From a virus, in the IMG/VR virus record IMGVR_UViG_3300025674_000089, positions 1 through 43,930 of that record: a DNA stretch of 43,930 nt; one strand, 5' to 3'. Position numbers and translations under genes: made by a program. The notes below the pieces were generated by a model. It saw nothing but the letters and a program-made list of their open reading frames with translations. It searched no databases and was not told the DNA's origin. Shown here one piece after another: positions 20,938 to 42,815 of the stretch (within the stretch, counting starts at the first letter, position 1; the number at the start of each line of letters is the position of its first letter).

Positions 20938-20968
20938 CTAAATAGAGGGGTAGCACCCCTCTTTTTTT
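20938..20968 (+). terminator. Terminator nested with late promoter CTAAATA
   Basis: GAGGGGT (20945-20951), loop AGC and ACCCCTC (20955-20961) form a strong hairpin followed by seven T. CTAAATA lies at 20938-20944, so a late start at about 20950 would begin inside the left arm and escape termination. The next start codon is immediately after the T-run at 20969, so the only ribosome-binding material would be the hairpin bases. Confidence 0.85.
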
Positions 20969-22345
20969 ATGGCAGGAAGAAAACTAGAAGAAGTATGGGA
21001 CAGATACGTTTCTGTTTTTCGAGCTGGTGTGGAGACTGAAGTCAAGATCAACACTCCTTTGTGGTCTGACAATAAAGGATCTCGGAAGATAAAAACTATT
21101 CCTAAAAATTCAGTTGTCCATATCAAACCCGTAGATGCACCCATTCCAGTGACATTCCTGGAGGTTGTTTGGTGTGAAACATCTTGTGGAGATCCTCATG
21201 AGGGTTGGGTCCGCATCACAGCATTGAAGAAACCACAGACTCGCAGTGGTGGTCAATCATTCGAGATGAAACCTCAGAAATTTCCTGGGTTTCCATTGGA
21301 TAGATGGATACAATATCCTGCATATCTGGAAGCTCTTAAGACAGCAATCGAAGTTAGGGTTGAGTTGCCAACGGTGGTCAAGACTTTCTTAGTTGAGTTG
21401 GTTGAGTATTGCGATTCACATTCTGCTGGTGATAGGGCGGACTTGGTAACTGCATACAGAAACCTCACCGACTCTGCTTATGACGCAGTGATTAAGGATA
21501 TTCAGAAAGATTTTAGTGAGATGATGGCACCTATTTGTGTGCTTGAGCGTGGTGCGAGTCAGTTGCAACAACTTGGATTCACTAATCTAAACAAGGGTAA
21601 TGCTAGTGTCTTCATTCCCCAGGCAGGTAATGAGCCACTGATTGACTTCAAGCTGAAAGATGGTGCTAATAGAGAGTATCCTTTCTCGGTTAAGGTGCTG
21701 TCCAATACAACCAACGTGATCAAACCTCAAGACCTCGTTAACTTTATGGACGCCAATGTGAGGGATCCCTTCATGGTGGAATACGAAAAGAAAATTGAAG
21801 CCAAGGTTTTGAGGACACTGGGCAATAAAACTGATAGTGTGGCAGAGTCCACCTATAAGACAATTCGACTACTGGCACAGCAGTCCAACCTCACCAGCAG
21901 GTTTCCTGATAATATACTTCAAGCGATACCAGCAGACCCATCACCCACCACTATGACAGAGGCACACATGGAGCAATACTCTTCTGTGTGGACACAAATG
22001 GCAGCGACCTACTACCCACAATTCAACCAGCAGAGTCAGTTTACTGATACTAGCCTGGGTGGGTCAGGAAAGAGAAACGCAAAATACAATCAGGTCTCGC
22101 TGATTATGCAACTCGCCATCCAGAAGTTTTCCGACGATGGGATCCTTCAATACAGGGAGATCGTAGTAGATTACCTTATGAATAAGGTCACCTACTACAA
22201 ATTCAAACTGGGTGGAAATGGTATGCCAGAATTCAAGATGGAGAATAAGGCATACAATCAACTTAGACGCACAGACAGATTCAAACTGAGAGCAAAGTCT
22301 TACAAATCATCACCAGTAAACGATCGAGTAGGAATCCAACCGTAA
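20969..22345 (+). CDS. Conserved cyanophage protein, 458 aa, unknown
   Basis: The ATG follows the terminator T-run directly. The N-terminal 100 residues look beta-rich (SVVHIKPVDAPIPVTFLEVV, then CETSCGDPHEGWVRI, possibly an SH3-like fold). The middle is helical, with CDSHSAGDRADLV. Around residues 205-250, LIDFKLKDG then YPFSVKVLS faintly resembles the D...(D/E/S)xK core of PD-(D/E)XK or sLK-type nucleases. The rest is helical. It overlaps the next gene by 1 base and heads a late cassette of five genes. No firm function. Confidence 0.6.
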   Translation: MAGRKLEEVWDRYVSVFRAGVETEVKINTPLWSDNKGSRKIKTIPKNSVVHIKPVDAPIPVTFLEVVWCETSCGDPHEGWVRITALKKPQTRSGGQSFEMKPQKFPGFPLDRWIQYPAYLEALKTAIEVRVELPTVVKTFLVELVEYCDSHSAGDRADLVTAYRNLTDSAYDAVIKDIQKDFSEMMAPICVLERGASQLQQLGFTNLNKGNASVFIPQAGNEPLIDFKLKDGANREYPFSVKVLSNTTNVIKPQDLVNFMDANVRDPFMVEYEKKIEAKVLRTLGNKTDSVAESTYKTIRLLAQQSNLTSRFPDNILQAIPADPSPTTMTEAHMEQYSSVWTQMAATYYPQFNQQSQFTDTSLGGSGKRNAKYNQVSLIMQLAIQKFSDDGILQYREIVVDYLMNKVTYYKFKLGGNGMPEFKMENKAYNQLRRTDRFKLRAKSYKSSPVNDRVGIQP

Positions 22346-23541
22346 TGGCAAAGAATACACACCTTGAGCACCTTGAAGATGACATCATCAACAATGGATA
22401 TTCTGGTGCTGAGAATGCAATTCGATTTCTGAAGTCTCTCCGTGACATGCTGACCACTGGTAAGGGTGGTAGCAACGTCAAGGTGACGACGAAATGGGAC
22501 GGTGCTCCTGCTATTATCTGTGGCACTGACCCTGAGTTGGATCTATTCTTTGTGGGCACCAAGTCTGTCTTCGCCAAGAATGATCCTAAGGTATGCTATA
22601 GCGATGCTGACATTGATACCTTTTATGGAGATCACCCCATCAGGGATAAACTTAAGTTGTGCCTGAAGATGCTTAGCACTCTACCTATCAAGGGCGTCTT
22701 ACAGGGGGATCTACTATTCACTGGCACCCCTCCATTAACTACTATGGGTGGCAAGAGGTGCTACAAATTCAAACCAAATACCATCACATACTGCGTTGAG
22801 GCAGACACCAAGATGGGGAAGATTGTTTCCGATGCTGACCTGGGTATTGTGTTTCATACCTATTACACTGGAAGCAGTATCGAATCAATGTCCGCTGGGT
22901 TTGGGGTTGATGTCAGTAAGTTACAAGGTAACCCGAAGGTCGCTGTATTCTCTTCAACCTTTAGTAATGTGAATGGGAAAGCAAACCTATCCAGCACGGA
23001 GTTAAACAAGATCAATAACACCATTTCAGTTGCAGAAAGGAATCTTGCCACTGGTAAGGACTTTCTCAATACCATTGCTGCAGAGAAGGGCACTGTGTCC
23101 ACTCCTGCTATCTTCAAGATCTATTTTAATCAGGTCATTAAGTCTGGGAAGATTCCTAGCAGCAGCACTGGCATGGCAAAGGAATTCACTGAATTTGTTA
23201 TGTATCGATACAACGAAGAGATCAAGAAGAAGAAGACTCCCAAGTCCCAGAAGGATTGGACTGACAAGAAGGACCAATCACTTAAATACCTAAATACTAA
23301 TAAGACTAAAATGTATGCTGCACTTAGCGGATTCATGAATTTGATTCAAGCAAAGATACAGATCATAAATAAGTTGTCAAAAATTGAAGGCATTGGCACA
23401 TTCTTGGAAGACGAGAATGGTTACAAGGTTACAAGTCCAGAAGGATTTGTGGCTATACAAGATGGTGCAGCACTGAAACTTGTTGATAGACTTGAGTTTT
23501 CTAGGGCAAACTTCACGGTAGCAAAAGACTGGGGCAAATGA
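22345..23541 (+). CDS. KxDG-motif nucleotidyltransferase-like protein
   Basis: 398 aa. VTTKWDGAPAIICG places Lys50 in a KxDG motif I, the AMP-accepting site of DNA/RNA ligases and capping enzymes, in a beta-strand context. Further strand-like pieces follow in a sensible order: DLFFVGTKSVF, IKGVLQGDLLF (motif IV-like position) and CYKFKPNTITY (motif V-like K-x-K). The C-terminal half is helical and Lys-rich. I recognise it as an unnamed cyanophage family. The ligase-like assignment is inference. It is adjacent to and coupled with (ATGA) an HxGH adenylyltransferase-like gene. Confidence 0.6.
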   Translation: MAKNTHLEHLEDDIINNGYSGAENAIRFLKSLRDMLTTGKGGSNVKVTTKWDGAPAIICGTDPELDLFFVGTKSVFAKNDPKVCYSDADIDTFYGDHPIRDKLKLCLKMLSTLPIKGVLQGDLLFTGTPPLTTMGGKRCYKFKPNTITYCVEADTKMGKIVSDADLGIVFHTYYTGSSIESMSAGFGVDVSKLQGNPKVAVFSSTFSNVNGKANLSSTELNKINNTISVAERNLATGKDFLNTIAAEKGTVSTPAIFKIYFNQVIKSGKIPSSSTGMAKEFTEFVMYRYNEEIKKKKTPKSQKDWTDKKDQSLKYLNTNKTKMYAALSGFMNLIQAKIQIINKLSKIEGIGTFLEDENGYKVTSPEGFVAIQDGAALKLVDRLEFSRANFTVAKDWGK

Positions 23542-24647
23542 GATTTATCGAATTCATTAGAGAGGCAGCGCAATCTGCTACTAAGAAACCTTCCACCTCT
23601 TCTAAGGGTAGGGCTGGTAGCAAATCCAATCAACCTGAGGATACTCATGTCGCTATTACATTTGGTAGGTTTAATCCTCCTCACGCTGGTCATGGCAAGC
23701 TTCTCGATGCTGTTAAGGCACATGCTGGTGACAGCGGTAACTATCGCATCTATCCCTCCAGAAGCCAGGACCATAAGAAGAATCCGCTGACCGCTGATCA
23801 GAAGGTTGGGCACATGAGGAAACTCTTCCCCAATCATAAGAAAGCAATTCAAAACAGTGAAGCACATCGCAACATCTTTGACATTCTTCGTGACCTCCAT
23901 GACGAGGGTCACCAGCATGTGACTATGGTTGTGGGTGATGACCGTGTGAAAGAGTTTGAGAAACTCACCCAAAAATATAATGGTGTGCATTATGACTTCA
24001 AGTCAATTAACATTAAGTCTGCAGGTGCTCGTGCTGACGATTCTGATGATCCTATTGAAAATCTTAGTGCCAGTAAAATGCGAGCCCACGCGAGCGGGGG
24101 AGATCACGAATCCTTTCACGCAGGAATGCCTAAAGGAGTAAGTAGAAAGCATAGTCAGGCATTGATGCAGGATGTCCTCACAGGCATGACTCCTCCACCT
24201 AAGCCTGATAAAAAGTCCAAGAAGAAAGGAGAGTCTGTCCACGAATCTGTCTGGGAATATGCTCCCAAGTTGGACTTCTCTACCTTCCGTGATCACTACA
24301 TGCTTAATCATATCTTCAAAGTTGGTGCTATAGTAGAGCATGACGACAGTGGTATTCGTGGAGAGGTTGTCCATCGTGGACCCAACTACATCATCTTTAA
24401 GGATCAGTATATGGGCGAGCATCGTGCATGGTTGCAACACGTTACTGAAATTACTCAGGGTGGTGGTGTAGTCTCTGCTTGGGCAGAGCTCGACCGAGAC
24501 CAGTCTAATTTCTCTGCTGATGATGGCAGTGGAAATGAGTGGAAAGTTGGCACTGATAAATATAGAATTGCAGTCCAGAATATGACTCCTGGACAAGCAA
24601 CCAAGAAGTTTTCTGAGTTTCGTAAGAATCAAAAAACTATCAAATAA
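23538..24647 (+). CDS. HxGH nucleotidyltransferase (NMN adenylyltransferase-like), possible virion-packaged
   Basis: 369 aa. The Rossmann-type motif is AITFGRFNPPHAGH (HxGH at 49-52), and a (I/L)S-x-S/T-x-x-R-like motif is LSASKMR at 176-182, as in NadM/NadR and other adenylyl/cytidylyltransferases. The N-terminus MRFIEFIREAAQ resembles the T4 capsid-targeting sequence (MKTYQEFIAEA), with an I-x-E/A site for the prohead protease. The C-terminal 150 residues are an unrelated beta-rich region with WAELDRDQSNFSADDGSG. NAD synthesis from NMN is a plausible role. The late position before structural genes agrees with packaging. Confidence 0.7.
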   Translation: MRFIEFIREAAQSATKKPSTSSKGRAGSKSNQPEDTHVAITFGRFNPPHAGHGKLLDAVKAHAGDSGNYRIYPSRSQDHKKNPLTADQKVGHMRKLFPNHKKAIQNSEAHRNIFDILRDLHDEGHQHVTMVVGDDRVKEFEKLTQKYNGVHYDFKSINIKSAGARADDSDDPIENLSASKMRAHASGGDHESFHAGMPKGVSRKHSQALMQDVLTGMTPPPKPDKKSKKKGESVHESVWEYAPKLDFSTFRDHYMLNHIFKVGAIVEHDDSGIRGEVVHRGPNYIIFKDQYMGEHRAWLQHVTEITQGGGVVSAWAELDRDQSNFSADDGSGNEWKVGTDKYRIAVQNMTPGQATKKFSEFRKNQKTIK

Positions 24648-24676: not shown

Positions 24677-26290
24677 ATGACGTTAGAGATTAAAGTTGCT
24701 GCTTCTCTTATGAAGTACAACTTCTATGAGCAAAGCAGAATCCTGGATGCTATCGAGCATGGACTTGAGGGCGACCTGCCCACAGCACATTTGAGAGAAG
24801 GTGCTGCTAAGGTCATCGAAGTATTTGACAACCATGAGCCAGTGGTTGAGGGGTATGCTGGATTCCCTGTAGAGCGTGACCATGTTGCGAAGAAAAAGTC
24901 GCAGCATAGCAACGACAGAAATGTCGGTAGAGTTATCCGTTCTGGTGGTGAGTCCTATTTGATTACTGGTCGTAAGAGTGACGGTCGTTATCAGATCGTT
25001 AGTAAAGACGGTAAGAAAACTGCCAAGGCACCTGAAGACATTGGTCTCAATCTTCAGCGTGAAGACATGGTGGTTGGAGTTGACATCGAAGATCTTCATC
25101 AGATGATGGTGGAGGAGAAGATGGATGGAGTTGATGACAATGGTTTCACAAAATGCTGGAAGGGTTATGTGAAGCGTGGCACCAAAATGAAGGGTGGCAA
25201 GGAAGTCAACAACTGTGTCAAGGAAGCCACAGCGATGGCAAAGCGTGGTCATGATGAGACTGCAATCCGCAATAAGATTGCCAAGTCAACTGGTGGCGGT
25301 AAGTCTGCCGATAGAGCAACTGCACTTGCAGATAAACCCACCTTCGGTAATGACAAAGCTGCTAAGCAGAGATCTGATCTTGCTAGGAAGCAAAGAACTG
25401 ACTTCCGTAAGACCACTTCTTCCTCCTCTGGTCTTCATGGTTATGCTCACAAGTCTGATGACCCTAAGGTGAAGGCAAAGCAAGCAGCAAGAGGTGCTCA
25501 GCGTGGTGCTCTGACACCTAACGAGAAGAAGTCTCTGAATAGAGAAGAGTTTGACGCATTCATTGAGAGCGTCATCATGGATGAGGAGTTTGATACCCTC
25601 ACATTTGATGAGCTTCATGACATCTGTGTCGAAGCACTGTTGGAAATTGAAACTGAAGAGATGCTGACCGAGGCACTTGAGTGCATCGATCAACTGGATC
25701 TTCTGACTGAAGTTATGGATCGTGGCGAGATCCAACGTCGTCGTGACCAAGCCAAGGATAGACTTGCTACTGGTGCTGCCATGAAGAAAGCAGCCGAGAG
25801 GTCTTCCTCCAGCGATTCCCCCGCTGGTGGTCGCCGCGAAAAGTTTAAGGCAGCACTGAAGACCGCTGCTAGTGCCGTCCGTAAGGGCATCGTGGGTGGT
25901 GCTAAACTGGCAGGCAAGGCAGCAGGTCATGCTAAAAACCTCGCTAAGGACGCAGCAAGCGCCGCTAGCGATGGTTACAAGTCAACACAAAAATCAAAAC
26001 AAAGCAGCACAAGCAGCAGTGGATCTAGCACTGGTGGTAGCGACTCCGATTCCGATTCCGACTCCGATACATCGAGTAGCACCCCTGCTAGGAAACCCTC
26101 TGCTCCTGCTCAGAGATCAGGAGACTCCTCTAAGAAGGGTCCTGGTATCGCCAGTAAAATTAAGAAAGGAATCAAGAAAGTCGTTGGCGTTGGATCTCGT
26201 GCCGTCGCCAAAGCATCTGGTTATGTTGCCAAGCGTTTGGGCGAAGAGTCTAAATATGATTGGCGCAAGGAAATCATGGGGGATAAGTGA
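24677..26290 (+). CDS. Large basic low-complexity protein, histone-H1-like C-terminus, probable virion protein
   Basis: 537 aa. The N-terminal 150 residues are globular. Then comes a Cys motif, CWKGYVKRGTKMKGGKEV followed by NCVKE (about residues 160-182), which I recognise from several marine myovirus proteins. The middle is acidic (FDAFIESVIMDEEFDTL and LLEIETEEMLTEALE). From about residue 370 it turns into Ala/Lys/Ser repeats (AALKTAASAVRKGIVGGAK, KLAGKAAGHAKNLAKDAAS), resembling H1 tails, with a short Ser-Asp repeat at 26041-26068. It probably binds DNA in the capsid or core. Function inferred only. Confidence 0.65.
   Translation: MTLEIKVAASLMKYNFYEQSRILDAIEHGLEGDLPTAHLREGAAKVIEVFDNHEPVVEGYAGFPVERDHVAKKKSQHSNDRNVGRVIRSGGESYLITGRKSDGRYQIVSKDGKKTAKAPEDIGLNLQREDMVVGVDIEDLHQMMVEEKMDGVDDNGFTKCWKGYVKRGTKMKGGKEVNNCVKEATAMAKRGHDETAIRNKIAKSTGGGKSADRATALADKPTFGNDKAAKQRSDLARKQRTDFRKTTSSSSGLHGYAHKSDDPKVKAKQAARGAQRGALTPNEKKSLNREEFDAFIESVIMDEEFDTLTFDELHDICVEALLEIETEEMLTEALECIDQLDLLTEVMDRGEIQRRRDQAKDRLATGAAMKKAAERSSSSDSPAGGRREKFKAALKTAASAVRKGIVGGAKLAGKAAGHAKNLAKDAASAASDGYKSTQKSKQSSTSSSGSSTGGSDSDSDSDSDTSSSTPARKPSAPAQRSGDSSKKGPGIASKIKKGIKKVVGVGSRAVAKASGYVAKRLGEESKYDWRKEIMGDK
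26041..26068 (+). repeat. Ser-Asp codon repeat inside CDS
   Basis: Tandem TCCGAT/TCCGAC units (six-base period) encode alternating Ser-Asp residues within the low-complexity tail of the 24677 gene. Copy number could vary by slippage. Confidence 0.8.
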
Positions 26291-26667
26291 TGCAACACCC
26301 ATCTGAAAAGACGACGCTTAAAACCGTCAAAAAGAAAGGAGTCACTATCAACCCAAAAAAGGAAGATCTTATGAAAGAATCTATTAGAGCTAAGTTTGCT
26401 TCTGATCTTGAAAGTCTCAAGGAAGCTGCCAAGAAGAAAGCAAAGGAAAAGAAAGCTAAGCGTTGGTGGGATGACGACGGCGACGGCGTAGGTTATGAGA
26501 AAGGTGAAGTGTCTGGTAAGTTTAAGAAAGAAGAAGCTTCCCAGATCGACACCAGCGAAGCACAGAAGGTGATCACTGAGCGTCTCAGAAATAGAATGAT
26601 CCAAGCAACTCAAGACCACGATCGTCACATGGCTGGTCTGAGTGCCGAGGATTACAATTCTCTCTGA
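26287..26667 (+). CDS. Basic protein with EF-hand-like calcium loop
   Basis: 126 aa, overlapping the upstream stop. Lys-rich N-terminal half (ESLKEAAKKKAKEKKAKRW), then WWDDDGDGVGYEKGEVSGK, which contains the DxDxDG signature of EF-hand/dockerin calcium loops with the 12th position slightly off. This WWDDDGDG(I/V)GYEKGEV block recurs in other cyanophage proteins, in my recollection. The C-terminus is helical. It may be a virion or scaffold protein that senses Ca. Start at 26287 assumed; a later ATG at 26371 is possible. Confidence 0.6.
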   Translation: MMQHPSEKTTLKTVKKKGVTINPKKEDLMKESIRAKFASDLESLKEAAKKKAKEKKAKRWWDDDGDGVGYEKGEVSGKFKKEEASQIDTSEAQKVITERLRNRMIQATQDHDRHMAGLSAEDYNSL

Positions 26668-27608: not shown

Positions 27609-27980
27609 ATGCAATTTGAGAGTCTTTCGGAAAAGAATCATTTGCTCTTTGCGATAAAACACTACAGTAACCCTCAGTCGGTTACTGTAGATGATTTTAT
27701 GGAGGACATGAAGAAGTTTAAGTATTTGAAGAGGTTACTCAAACGATACTTAAAGTCGGGGACTCTCAGGACTAACCTAATTATCAATCACATTATTGTA
27801 TTGTTTAATGTTTTTGGTGATGCAACCATTCCGTTGCTCATGTATAAGCTTGAGAGGGAATACTGGTCTCTTCTGAAAACTTTCTTGATATATCTTGATA
27901 GGTATCCAGAATTGAATCAAGGCACTCTCAGGACGGTTGATATAGATATGGAAGTTTATGACATCCTTTCCAAGTTATGA
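27609..27980 (+). CDS. Conserved phage protein, helical, unknown
   Basis: 123 aa, mostly helical, with a central RTNLIINHIIVLFNVFGDATIPLLM motif and KLEREYWSLLKTFLIYLDR. I recall this pattern in many marine myoviruses as an unnamed family; it is short and leucine-rich but not clearly transmembrane. It overlaps the next gene by 4 bases. No function assigned. Confidence 0.6.
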   Translation: MQFESLSEKNHLLFAIKHYSNPQSVTVDDFMEDMKKFKYLKRLLKRYLKSGTLRTNLIINHIIVLFNVFGDATIPLLMYKLEREYWSLLKTFLIYLDRYPELNQGTLRTVDIDMEVYDILSKL

Positions 27981-28363
27981 ATGAAGATGCACCCACAATG
28001 AGCGTAGGGACTGGTGGATTCAGCGGTAGTGCTGCTGCCACAGGTCCAGTCGCAGGCTTCGATCCCCTTCTCGGCAAGAAAGTCAAGAAGAGGAAGTATA
28101 AGCCCAAGGGTCATGTCATTACTAACGTGGGAATCGGTGAGTCGTATGACAATAAAGAAGCAGGCGCTCTGCCTTTCCTGGTTAGTTATGATGGACAAGA
28201 ATTGTTTGTCCTGTATGGAAGATCTCCTTCCGAAGTTATGATTGAATTGAGGAAAATGTATCGCCCCGAGAGCCACAAGAAACTCAAAGTGACTCGTCTT
28301 TATCCTAACCAAGTCATAAAATTTTATTGGGATAAACGACAGAAAGCACTTGGAGCAGACTAA
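27977..28363 (+). CDS. Conserved hypothetical protein
   Basis: 128 aa. Gly/Ala-rich N-terminus (VGTGGFSGSAAATGPVAG), a basic patch (GKKVKKRKYKPKG), then a small alpha/beta domain ending FYWDKRQKALGAD. The basic patch could bind nucleic acid. It lies in an ATGA-linked run with 27609 and is followed by the coiled-coil protein at 28366. Unknown function. Confidence 0.55.
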   Translation: MNEDAPTMSVGTGGFSGSAAATGPVAGFDPLLGKKVKKRKYKPKGHVITNVGIGESYDNKEAGALPFLVSYDGQELFVLYGRSPSEVMIELRKMYRPESHKKLKVTRLYPNQVIKFYWDKRQKALGAD

Positions 28364-41735: not shown

Positions 41736-42815
41736 ATGACTGCAACTCTTTCAAGACAACGTTCTACTAACACCTGGGAGCAATTCTGCAACTGGGTTAC
41801 CTCTACCGACAACCGTCTTTATGTCGGTTGGTTTGGCGTCCTGATGATCCCTTGTCTGCTCGCTGCTACAACGTGTTTCATCATCGCCTTTATCGGTGCT
41901 CCCCCTGTGGACATCGACGGCATTCGGGAACCTGTTTCTGGGTCTCTCATGTATGGTAACAACATCATCTCTGGTGCTGTTATCCCTTCTTCCAACGCTA
42001 TTGGTCTGCACTTCTATCCCATCTGGGAAGCAGCATCGCTTGACGAATGGCTCTACAACGGTGGTCCTTTCCAACTCGTTGTTTTCCACTTTCTGATCGG
42101 TATCTATGCATACATGGGTCGTGAGTGGGAATTGTCCTACCGCCTGGGTATGCGCCCCTGGATCTGTGTTGCCTACTCCGCTCCTGTTGCTGCTGCATCT
42201 GCTGTCTTCCTTGTATATCCTTTCGGACAAGGTTCTTTCTCTGATGCAATGCCTCTCGGCATCTCTGGCACGTTTAACTACATGCTTGTTTTCCAAGCAG
42301 AGCACAACATCCTCATGCATCCTTTCCATATGCTCGGTGTTGCTGGGGTATTCGGTGGATCTCTTTTCTCTGCTATGCATGGAAGTCTGGTTACTTCTTC
42401 GCTGGTGCGTGAGACTACTGAAAACGAGTCACAGAATTATGGTTATAAGTTTGGTCAGGAAGAAGAGACGTATAACATCGTCGCTGCTCACGGTTACTTT
42501 GGTCGCCTGATCTTCCAGTATGCTTCCTTTAATAATTCTCGCTCTCTTCACTTCTTCCTTGCTGCTTGGCCAGTGGTCGGCATCTGGTTTACTGCTCTTG
42601 GTGTTAGCACTATGGCATTTAACCTGAATGGTTTCAACTTCAACCAGTCGATCATCGACAACCAAGGTCAAGTGATTAACACCTGGGCAGATGTCCTTAA
42701 CCGTGCTGGTCTGGGTATGGAAGTCATGCACGAGCGTAATGCTCACAACTTCCCTCTCGACCTTGCTGCTGCTGAGTCCACTCCTGTGGCACTCACCGCA
42801 CCTGCAATTGGTTGA
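41736..42815 (+). CDS. psbA: Photosystem II D1 protein
   Basis: 359 aa, full length. All key residues are at their standard numbers: Y161 (TyrZ), D170, E189, H190, H198 (P680), H215, S264, H272, H332, E333, H337, D342 and A344. A C-terminal extension of 15 residues beyond A344 would be cut by CtpA. Residue 130 is Glu (GREWELS), as in high-light D1 forms. The gene has no intron. It replaces damaged host D1 during infection. A dual promoter lies upstream and a strong terminator downstream. Confidence 0.99.

What the first reader, a model, noticed from the sequence alone, without database searches (positions are those of the whole stretch)
23538..24647. Adenylyltransferase with a capsid-targeting-like N-terminus
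The N-terminus MRFIEFIREAAQ resembles the T4 capsid-targeting sequence that leads internal proteins into the prohead, with an I-x-E/A cut site for the gp21-type protease. Behind it is a complete HxGH adenylyltransferase domain. An NMN adenylyltransferase packed in the head and injected with DNA could rebuild NAD at once, which would counter NAD-depleting host defences.
Basis: partly seen in the sequence, partly recalled or inferred. Interest (0 to 1): 0.72.

Follow-up and report, generated by a model that had tools for sequence, protein, structure and literature searches.

The report
Phage enzyme with T4-style head-packaging tag
Ocean viruses of cyanobacteria carry an enzyme of the NAD-making type that starts with the same short address tag phage T4 uses to load proteins into its head, so the enzyme probably enters the host together with the viral DNA; what it does there is still unknown.

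Summary
ORF 23538-24647 (369 aa) begins MRFIEFIRE|AAQ and carries an intact HxGH/SxSxxR nucleotidylyltransferase domain. The leader is not chance: 1 of 1254 start positions in the window, and 2 of 4251 in relative P-TIM40 (one its ortholog), fit the pattern; in T4 it recovers ipII and ipIII. All 78 distinct full-length IMG/VR homologs keep it, and so do 12 of 17 named phage records, the five without being short stand-alone enzymes. The fixed positions are those reported to matter in T4 IPIII. Orthologs have been found in purified virions of S-SM1, S-SCSM1 and S-SZBM1. So a head-packaged, prohead-protease-trimmed, injected enzyme is well supported; the cut itself is inferred.

The NAD part is weaker. 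Sequence leans to NMN/NaMN adenylyltransferases, far below curated cut-offs, and the fold ties with PPAT. "Rebuilds NAD at once against NAD-depleting defences" is not supported: no nicotinamide/nicotinate phosphoribosyltransferase in 9 of 9 phage records, and in only 2 of 101 host-family genomes; SIR2_2 in 9 and TIR_2 in 5 of 101.

Virion presence and an NAD role are already in print; I found no paper naming the tag. New beside it: upstream DUF6267, ATGA-coupled, looks like an RNA ligase.

The parts
23538..24647 (+). Long-form nucleotidylyltransferase ORF, 369 aa (T4-GC190 / PHROG 395 'cytidyltransferase' family)
   Evidence: ortholog of S-SM1 SSM1_190 (T4-LIKE GC: 190), P-TIM40 PTIM40_183, S-SZBM1 SSZBM1_140
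23538..23564 (+). Capsid-targeting-like leader MRFIEFIRE (codons 1-9); inferred prohead-protease cut between 23564 and 23565 (E9|A10)
   Evidence: same spacing as T4 ipII/ipIII leaders read from NC_000866
23568..23645 (+). Variable low-complexity linker, residues 11-36, low model confidence
   Evidence: the 20 residues after the leader share 0.155 mean pairwise identity
23646..24188 (+). HIGH-superfamily nucleotidylyltransferase domain, residues 37-217
23664..23693 (+). GRFNPPHAGH (HxGH motif), residues 43-52
   Evidence: F42, G43, R44, F45, N46, P47, P48, G51 and H52 invariant in 55 of 55 sequences of A3; H49 is H or T
24066..24083 (+). SASKMR (SxSxxR motif), residues 177-182
   Evidence: S177, S179 and R182 invariant in 55 of 55
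24324..24449 (+). C-terminal small beta domain, residues 263-304
   Evidence: predicted strands and confidence; separate small ORF in ACG-2014e
22345..23541 (+). DUF6267, 398 aa; RNA-ligase-like (invariant KWDG); stop overlaps the next ATG (ATGA)
   Evidence: Pfam PF19782 2.2e-129; K50, D52 and G53 invariant in 41 of 41; VIA-align ranks 1-13 all RNA ligases, Z 8.2 to 6.8; -4 overlap in 42 of 70 loci
24677..26290 (+). Charged Ala/Ser/Lys-rich protein, 537 aa; S-SZBM1 counterpart SSZBM1_139 was found in virions
20969..22345 (+). 458 aa ORF upstream of DUF6267, no family; S-SZBM1 counterpart SSZBM1_142 not in its list of 30 virion proteins
26287..26667 (+). 126 aa charged protein (PHROG 24377)

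Best explanation
A head-internal cargo enzyme of T4-like cyanophages (Kyanoviridae). Step 1 (inferred, strong): the leader M-x(1-3)-[F/Y/L]-x-x-F-[I/L]-x-E-A binds the prohead core as a capsid-targeting sequence. Step 2 (inferred): the gp21-type protease cuts after E9, at the same kind of [L/I]-x-E|A site seen in the major capsid protein. Step 3 (shown by others for orthologs): the enzyme stays in the purified virion. Step 4 (inferred): it is ejected with the DNA. Step 5 (tentative): in the cell it adenylylates a mononucleotide, most likely NaMN or NMN, adding to NAD supply from the host's de novo pathway in early infection. The confidence given is for steps 1-4 together; step 5 alone about 0.45.
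For: Leader: 78 of 78 distinct full-length IMG/VR homologs. Positions P-7, P-4, P-3, P-1 and P1 share 0.81 mean pairwise identity against 0.17 for the positions between them, 0.155 for the next 20 residues and 0.74 for the catalytic motif. All 12 long-form named proteins have it. T4 ipII and ipIII, read from NC_000866, fit the same pattern; a T4 review gives IPIII residues 4 and 7 for targeting, 8 and 10 for processing (PMC9026906), which are F4, F7, L8 and E10 in S-SM1. MCP sites: P-TIM40 VLTE|AA, S-SCSM1 FLAE|AP, T4 FLTE|AE. Virion detection of orthologs: S-SM1, S-SCSM1, S-SZBM1; a cytidylyltransferase in S-CREM2. NAD branch: of 55 homologs, 50 match TIGR00482, 44 NadR, 26 NadM, 8 PPAT; PDB profile hits are NadR, MJ0541, a NadR-family enzyme and an NMN/NaMN adenylyltransferase in 4 of 6 rows, E 0.23-0.81.
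Against: No cut N-terminus has been reported that I saw. In S-SZBM1 the protein has 2 peptides and emPAI 0.26 against 2.83 for the portal, about one copy per virion on that crude scale, which also puts the MCP at only 117. S-SCSM1's authors allow that it may have remained after CsCl purification. The gene lies among replication genes, not head genes. Five of 17 named records have a short version without leader. Curated NMNAT cut-offs are far off (26.9 of 112.45 bits) and VIA-align ranks PPAT and NadM within 1 Z.
Confidence: 0.8

Rival explanations
1. One reading: the injected NMNAT restores NAD against NAD-depleting host defences.
For: Fold and motifs fit; head packaging fits an early need; phage NAD restoration exists elsewhere (NARP1, PMC12774641; NadV/NadM, PMC9503650).
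Against: No NAPRTase-family enzyme in 9 of 9 phage records and 2 of 101 host-family genomes, so products of NAD cleavage could hardly be turned back into NMN; SIR2_2 in 9 and TIR_2 in 5 of 101 host-family genomes while the gene is called core (PMC3037559); few copies per virion. PMC9503650 says every NadM phage also has NadV; these do not.
Confidence: 0.08
2. Different substrate: the enzyme works with the co-translated RNA-ligase-like DUF6267 in nucleic-acid end repair or modification rather than NAD supply.
For: ATGA coupling (-4) in 42 of 70 loci; DUF6267 in 10 of 10 cyanophage records; its ligase-like fold and invariant KxDG; substrate not fixed by fold.
Against: DUF6267 is not listed in S-SZBM1 virions, its S-SCSM1 match (221406-222275) falls on SSCSM1_257, not marked virion, and it has no [LI]xE site. 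In P-SSM2 and S-SCSM1 it lies far from the enzyme gene.
Confidence: 0.25
3. Scaffold role: the domain is a core or DNA-binding internal protein and enzymatic activity is secondary.
For: T4 internal proteins are basic and core-bound; positively charged composition.
Against: Catalytic motifs invariant in 55 of 55 sequences, more conserved than the linker.
Confidence: 0.12
4. The leader is an ordinary amphipathic helix (for example for oligomerisation) and virion detection is carry-over.
For: Model shows helix 3-14; low emPAI; authors' caveat.
Against: Position-by-position match to T4 leaders including E and A around the cut, which a plain helix does not need; repeated detection in independent isolates.
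Confidence: 0.12

Closest known systems
T4 internal proteins IPII and IPIII (capsid-targeting sequence, gp21-processed)
   Same: Leader pattern, spacing and [LI]xE|A cut site; virion-internal in T4 (PMC9026906)
   Different: T4 cargo are small basic non-enzymatic proteins; here the cargo is a large nucleotidylyltransferase kept across a phage family; cleavage not shown
Cyanophage virion 'NMNAT/cytidylyltransferase' (S-SM1 T4-GC190, S-SCSM1 ORF91, S-SZBM1_140)
   Same: Same family and same virion association; the three carry the leader
   Different: Those papers, in the passages and Table 1 seen, do not mention the leader
NMN/NaMN adenylyltransferases (NadM, NadD, NadR)
   Same: HxGH and SxSxxR motifs; best-scoring specific models
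   Different: Far below curated cut-offs; fused leader, linker and C-terminal beta domain
Phosphopantetheine adenylyltransferase (CoaD)
   Same: Fold, VIA-align Z 13.4
   Different: TIGR01510 hits only 8 of 55 homologs and not the window protein at E up to 1
Phage NAD restoration (NARP1; NadV plus NadM)
   Same: Possible NAD chemistry by a phage enzyme
   Different: No NAPRTase-family partner in 9 of 9 records
T4 Alt
   Same: Head-packaged injected enzyme linked to NAD (PMC9026906)
   Different: Consumes NAD; its leader MELITELFDE is a different sequence

Membership tests
T4-type capsid-targeted internal head protein | N-terminal leader of about 10 residues with targeting residues at IPIII positions 4 and 7 | tested here: met
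   F3 and F6 in the window (one residue shorter lead), F4/F7 in S-SM1; 78 of 78 unique homologs
T4-type capsid-targeted internal head protein | [LI]-x-E prohead-protease site ending the leader | tested here: met
   I7-R8-E9|A10; E at P-1 in 78 of 78, A at P1 in 69 of 78
T4-type capsid-targeted internal head protein | Protein present in the virion | not testable with these tools
   Published mass spectrometry for orthologs only: S-SM1, S-SCSM1, S-SZBM1
T4-type capsid-targeted internal head protein | Leader removed in the mature particle | not testable with these tools
   No N-terminal or semi-tryptic data seen
T4-type capsid-targeted internal head protein | gp21-type protease in the same phage | tested here: inconclusive
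   Window is a 43,930-base fragment; relatives P-TIM40 and S-SCSM1 have an annotated one
NMN/NaMN adenylyltransferase (NadD/NadM/NadR equivalogs) | HxGH and SxSxxR catalytic motifs | tested here: met
NMN/NaMN adenylyltransferase (NadD/NadM/NadR equivalogs) | Score above the NCBIfam curated cut-off | tested here: not met
   26.9 of 112.45 bits for TIGR00482. Best NadD-like hits in 8 cyanobacterial genomes score 65.9-83.2, also below it
NMN/NaMN adenylyltransferase (NadD/NadM/NadR equivalogs) | Uses NMN or NaMN with ATP | not testable with these tools
   needs an enzyme assay
Phosphopantetheine adenylyltransferase | Match to the PPAT model TIGR01510 | tested here: not met
   Not listed for the window protein at E up to 1; 8 of 55 homologs at E up to 0.1
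Phage NAD-restoration pathway (NadV/NadM type) | Phage-encoded phosphoribosyltransferase making NMN | tested here: not met
   PF04095 in 0 of 9 relatives' records; the window's own phage is only a fragment
Covalent nucleotidyltransferase/ligase superfamily (DUF6267) | KxDG nucleotidylation motif | tested here: met
   K50-W51-D52-G53; K, D and G invariant in 6 of 6 and 41 of 41
Covalent nucleotidyltransferase/ligase superfamily (DUF6267) | Ligase adenylation-domain fold | tested here: inconclusive
   VIA-align ranks 1-13 are RNA ligases, Z 8.2 to 6.8, but Foldseek gave 0 matches at E up to 0.001 and no Pfam ligase model hit

The most novel reading that the evidence does not exclude
T4-like cyanophages use capsid-targeting leaders to deliver a core metabolic-type enzyme, not only anti-restriction proteins, as a standard part of infection; with the co-translated RNA-ligase-like DUF6267 made in the cell it forms a nucleotidyl-transfer system acting on incoming DNA or host RNA.
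Probability: 0.15. Interest if true: 0.8.

Novelty: new variant of a known kind. Interest (0 to 1): 0.52.

Why it matters
Cyanophage virion proteomes list this enzyme again and again without saying how it gets in. A T4-type targeting leader gives a mechanism testable by one N-terminal peptide, extends a signal known to me from T4 and its close relatives to an enzyme of very abundant marine phages, and offers a rule for finding other injected cargo from sequence. The DUF6267 reading gives a function to a gene present in all 10 cyanophage records searched and named in no paper of the library.

Tried and rejected
First leader pattern matched 74 of 113 homologs; it missed forms such as MRFRQFIIEA and MNFTQFLKEA because of its spacing and its K/R at position 2. 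The wider pattern used afterwards was written on seeing the family, so its hit rate within the family is descriptive; T4, S-SCSM1 and the non-family ORFs are the outside checks. One search had a regex error and was redone.

Bellamy looked leaderless, but its annotated start is 16 codons too late; the upstream in-frame ATG gives MKSLFQFLNEA.

A DUF6267-enzyme fusion, hinted at by PHROG 455 matching both proteins, was not found: no ORF with both motifs in 104 loci.

phmmer of the single protein against PDB sequences gave nothing. The PDB profile search with A3 gave only E 0.23-0.81. With A4 the PDB profile hits were unrelated proteins. PPAT against NMNAT cannot be decided by fold.

Late-promoter-like sites: TATAAATA 3 (0.91 expected) and CTAAATA 8 (4.4 expected) in the window were not used as evidence. 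Supplementary tables (S-SM1 Table S8) could not be read.

Papers: PMC3037559, PMC9026906, PMC9602691, PMC12774641, PMC9503650, PMC10665884 and PMC9391042 were seen as passages; PMC9146016 as passages plus its tables section; the rest as search listings. That nobody has described the leader in cyanophages rests only. S-CBWM1 is known to me only through citation in PMC9602691 and PMC10665884.

Full report
What it is. The window is a 43,930-base virus record of a T4-like cyanophage: its genes match Kyanoviridae such as P-TIM40, S-WAM1 and S-SZBM1 and include psbA (window 41736-42815). ORF 23538-24647 encodes 369 residues with a HIGH-superfamily nucleotidylyltransferase domain (Pfam CTP_transf_like, 9e-8; PHROG 395). 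tblastn finds relatives in 531 of 50,697 phage records, 354 with one place covering at least 80% of the query, nearly all cyanophages.

The leader. The protein starts MRFIEFIRE|AAQ. In 27 of 27 loci of the first IMG/VR scan the N-terminus fits M-[KR]-[FY]-x-x-F-[IL]-x-E-A. After a wider scan (80 loci kept of 590 relatives), 78 of 78 distinct full-length ORFs, from 102 of the 104 loci given, fit M.{1,3}[FLYI]..F[ILVMF].E: F at P-4 78 of 78, E at P-1 78 of 78, A at P1 69 of 78 and S 6 of 78. The 80 kept loci are the best matches to the window protein, so distant forms are under-represented. Fixed positions share 0.81 mean pairwise identity, the positions between them 0.17, the next 20 residues 0.155, the catalytic motif 0.74. 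Four of the five fixed positions are named by the pattern itself, but no complete homolog in that set failed the pattern.

Named records fetched: 12 of 17 carry it (P-TIM40, S-SM1, Syn9, P-SSM2, S-CRM01, S-SCSM1, S-SZBM1, S-N03, S-SSM6b, ACG-2014b, ACG-2014d, and Bellamy once its start is corrected). The five without (P-HM2, RaK2, ACG-2014e, S-CAM1, Callisto) are short forms in which the catalytic domain begins within about 20 residues of the start; the four annotated ones are 178-190 aa and S-CAM1 is unannotated. So the leader goes with the long form.

Chance and positive control. Over start positions of ORFs the pattern hits 1 of 1254 in the window, 2 of 4251 in P-TIM40, 2 of 3839 in S-SCSM1, 1 of 1234 in part of S-SM1, and 4 of 2702 in T4, where the hits are ipII, ipIII, 61.1 and one internal start. 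ipI was not hit. In 104 IMG/VR loci, 13,575 start positions gave 10 hits outside the family, mostly internal or antisense. A review of T4 head assembly says IPIII residues 4 and 7 govern targeting and 8 and 10 processing, with cleavage after L/I-X-E (PMC9026906). S-SM1's MKKFSAFLNEA puts F, F, L and E at exactly those positions; the window's leader is one residue shorter at the start with the same spacing. The likely major-capsid cut sites, VLTE|AA in P-TIM40 and FLAE|AP in S-SCSM1, resemble T4's FLTE|AE.

In the virion. S-SM1's T4-GC190 'putative citidylyltransferase' was detected by mass spectrometry (PMC3037559); the S-SM1 record tags SSM1_190 as GC 190. S-SCSM1 ORF91 is among 45 virion proteins, and its authors propose an NAD effect but allow that such proteins may have remained after purification (PMC9602691). 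S-SZBM1_140 and _139, counterparts of window 23538-24647 and 24677-26290, are 2 of 30 virion proteins, with 2 and 4 peptides (PMC9146016). S-CREM2 ORF154, a cytidylyltransferase, is another (PMC10665884). In S-SZBM1 the emPAI is 0.26 against 2.83 for the portal, so copy number looks low.

Which substrate. Of 55 homologs, 50 hit the NadD model, 44 NadR, 26 NadM and 8 PPAT at E up to 0.1, none near the curated cut-offs for the window protein. Predicted model: mean pLDDT 80, catalytic core mostly above 90. Foldseek's best rows mix NadD, PPAT and human NMNAT; VIA-align gives PPAT 13.4 and NadM 13.1, a tie. R44 of GRF is invariant in 55 of 55. The archaeal NMNAT MJ0541 has GRFQP aligned there, and R11 mutants of another archaeal NMNAT have been crystallised (titles); that R11 corresponds to R44 is recalled, not tested. 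I hold NMN/NaMN as the likeliest substrate, at about 0.45.

Counter-defence. If the enzyme rebuilt NAD after cleavage it would need NMN. The NAPRTase family (PF04095), taken here to cover both nicotinate and nicotinamide phosphoribosyltransferases, is absent from 9 of 9 phage records (control: found in 6 of 14 named genomes) and present in 2 of 101 genomes of the family of Synechococcus sp. RCC307. SIR2_2 occurs in 9 and TIR_2 in 5 of those 101; other NAD-depleting effectors were not searched. A gene that is core in cyanophages is thus hard to explain by defences present in a minority of this sample, and the phage could only draw on NaMN or NMN already being made.

Neighbours. DUF6267 (22345-23541) ends in the ATGA that starts the enzyme; the -4 overlap occurs in 42 of 70 loci, and the family is in 10 of 10 cyanophage records. 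K50, D52 and G53 are invariant in 41 of 41. The model's best structural matches are RNA ligases, ranks 1-13, Z 8.2 down to 6.8, though Foldseek alone gave nothing at E up to 0.001. The tool's own note warns that a best Z of 7 to 8 is common, so motif and fold together carry the claim. DUF6267 is not among the 30 virion proteins of S-SZBM1.

Verdict. Real, well conserved, and best read as a capsid-targeted, injected enzyme. The packaging signal is the new part; virion presence and an NAD role are in print, and the anti-defence role is not supported.

Noticed in passing
window 22345-23541: DUF6267 has an invariant KxDG motif and a predicted fold closest to RNA ligases; no paper in the library names the family.
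   Followed up: yes
window 27977-28363: This 128 aa ORF begins with a near copy of the mature major-capsid N-arm (APTMSVGTGGFSGSAAATGPVAGFDP; P-TIM40 gp23 has APTMSAGTAGFSGSSTATGPVAGFDP right after its likely cut site); S-SM1 SSM1_197 starts similarly.
   Followed up: partly
L085 5696-5902, L099 5701-5943, L081 4775-5188: Small lysine-rich ORFs near the enzyme gene start with the same T4-like leader, like T4 internal proteins.
   Followed up: partly
T4 61.1 (L124 18966-19130, -): T4 61.1 starts with a capsid-targeting-like leader; it lies between genes 41 and 61, the same interval that holds the enzyme gene in cyanophages.
   Followed up: no
window 20944-20969: A terminator-like hairpin with a T-run ends right at the start codon of ORF 20969-22345, which has no visible ribosome-binding site.
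   Followed up: no
L041 6544-6753 (SSCSM1_93): A virion protein ends in RTFKEFLEYIE, which resembles the leader placed at the C-terminus.
   Followed up: no
L084 394-3204: The enzyme is fused in one IMG/VR contig to a long C-terminal extension (936 aa in all).
   Followed up: no
L129 482-529 (Bellamy): Annotated start of the ortholog is 16 codons downstream of the leader-bearing ATG.
   Followed up: yes
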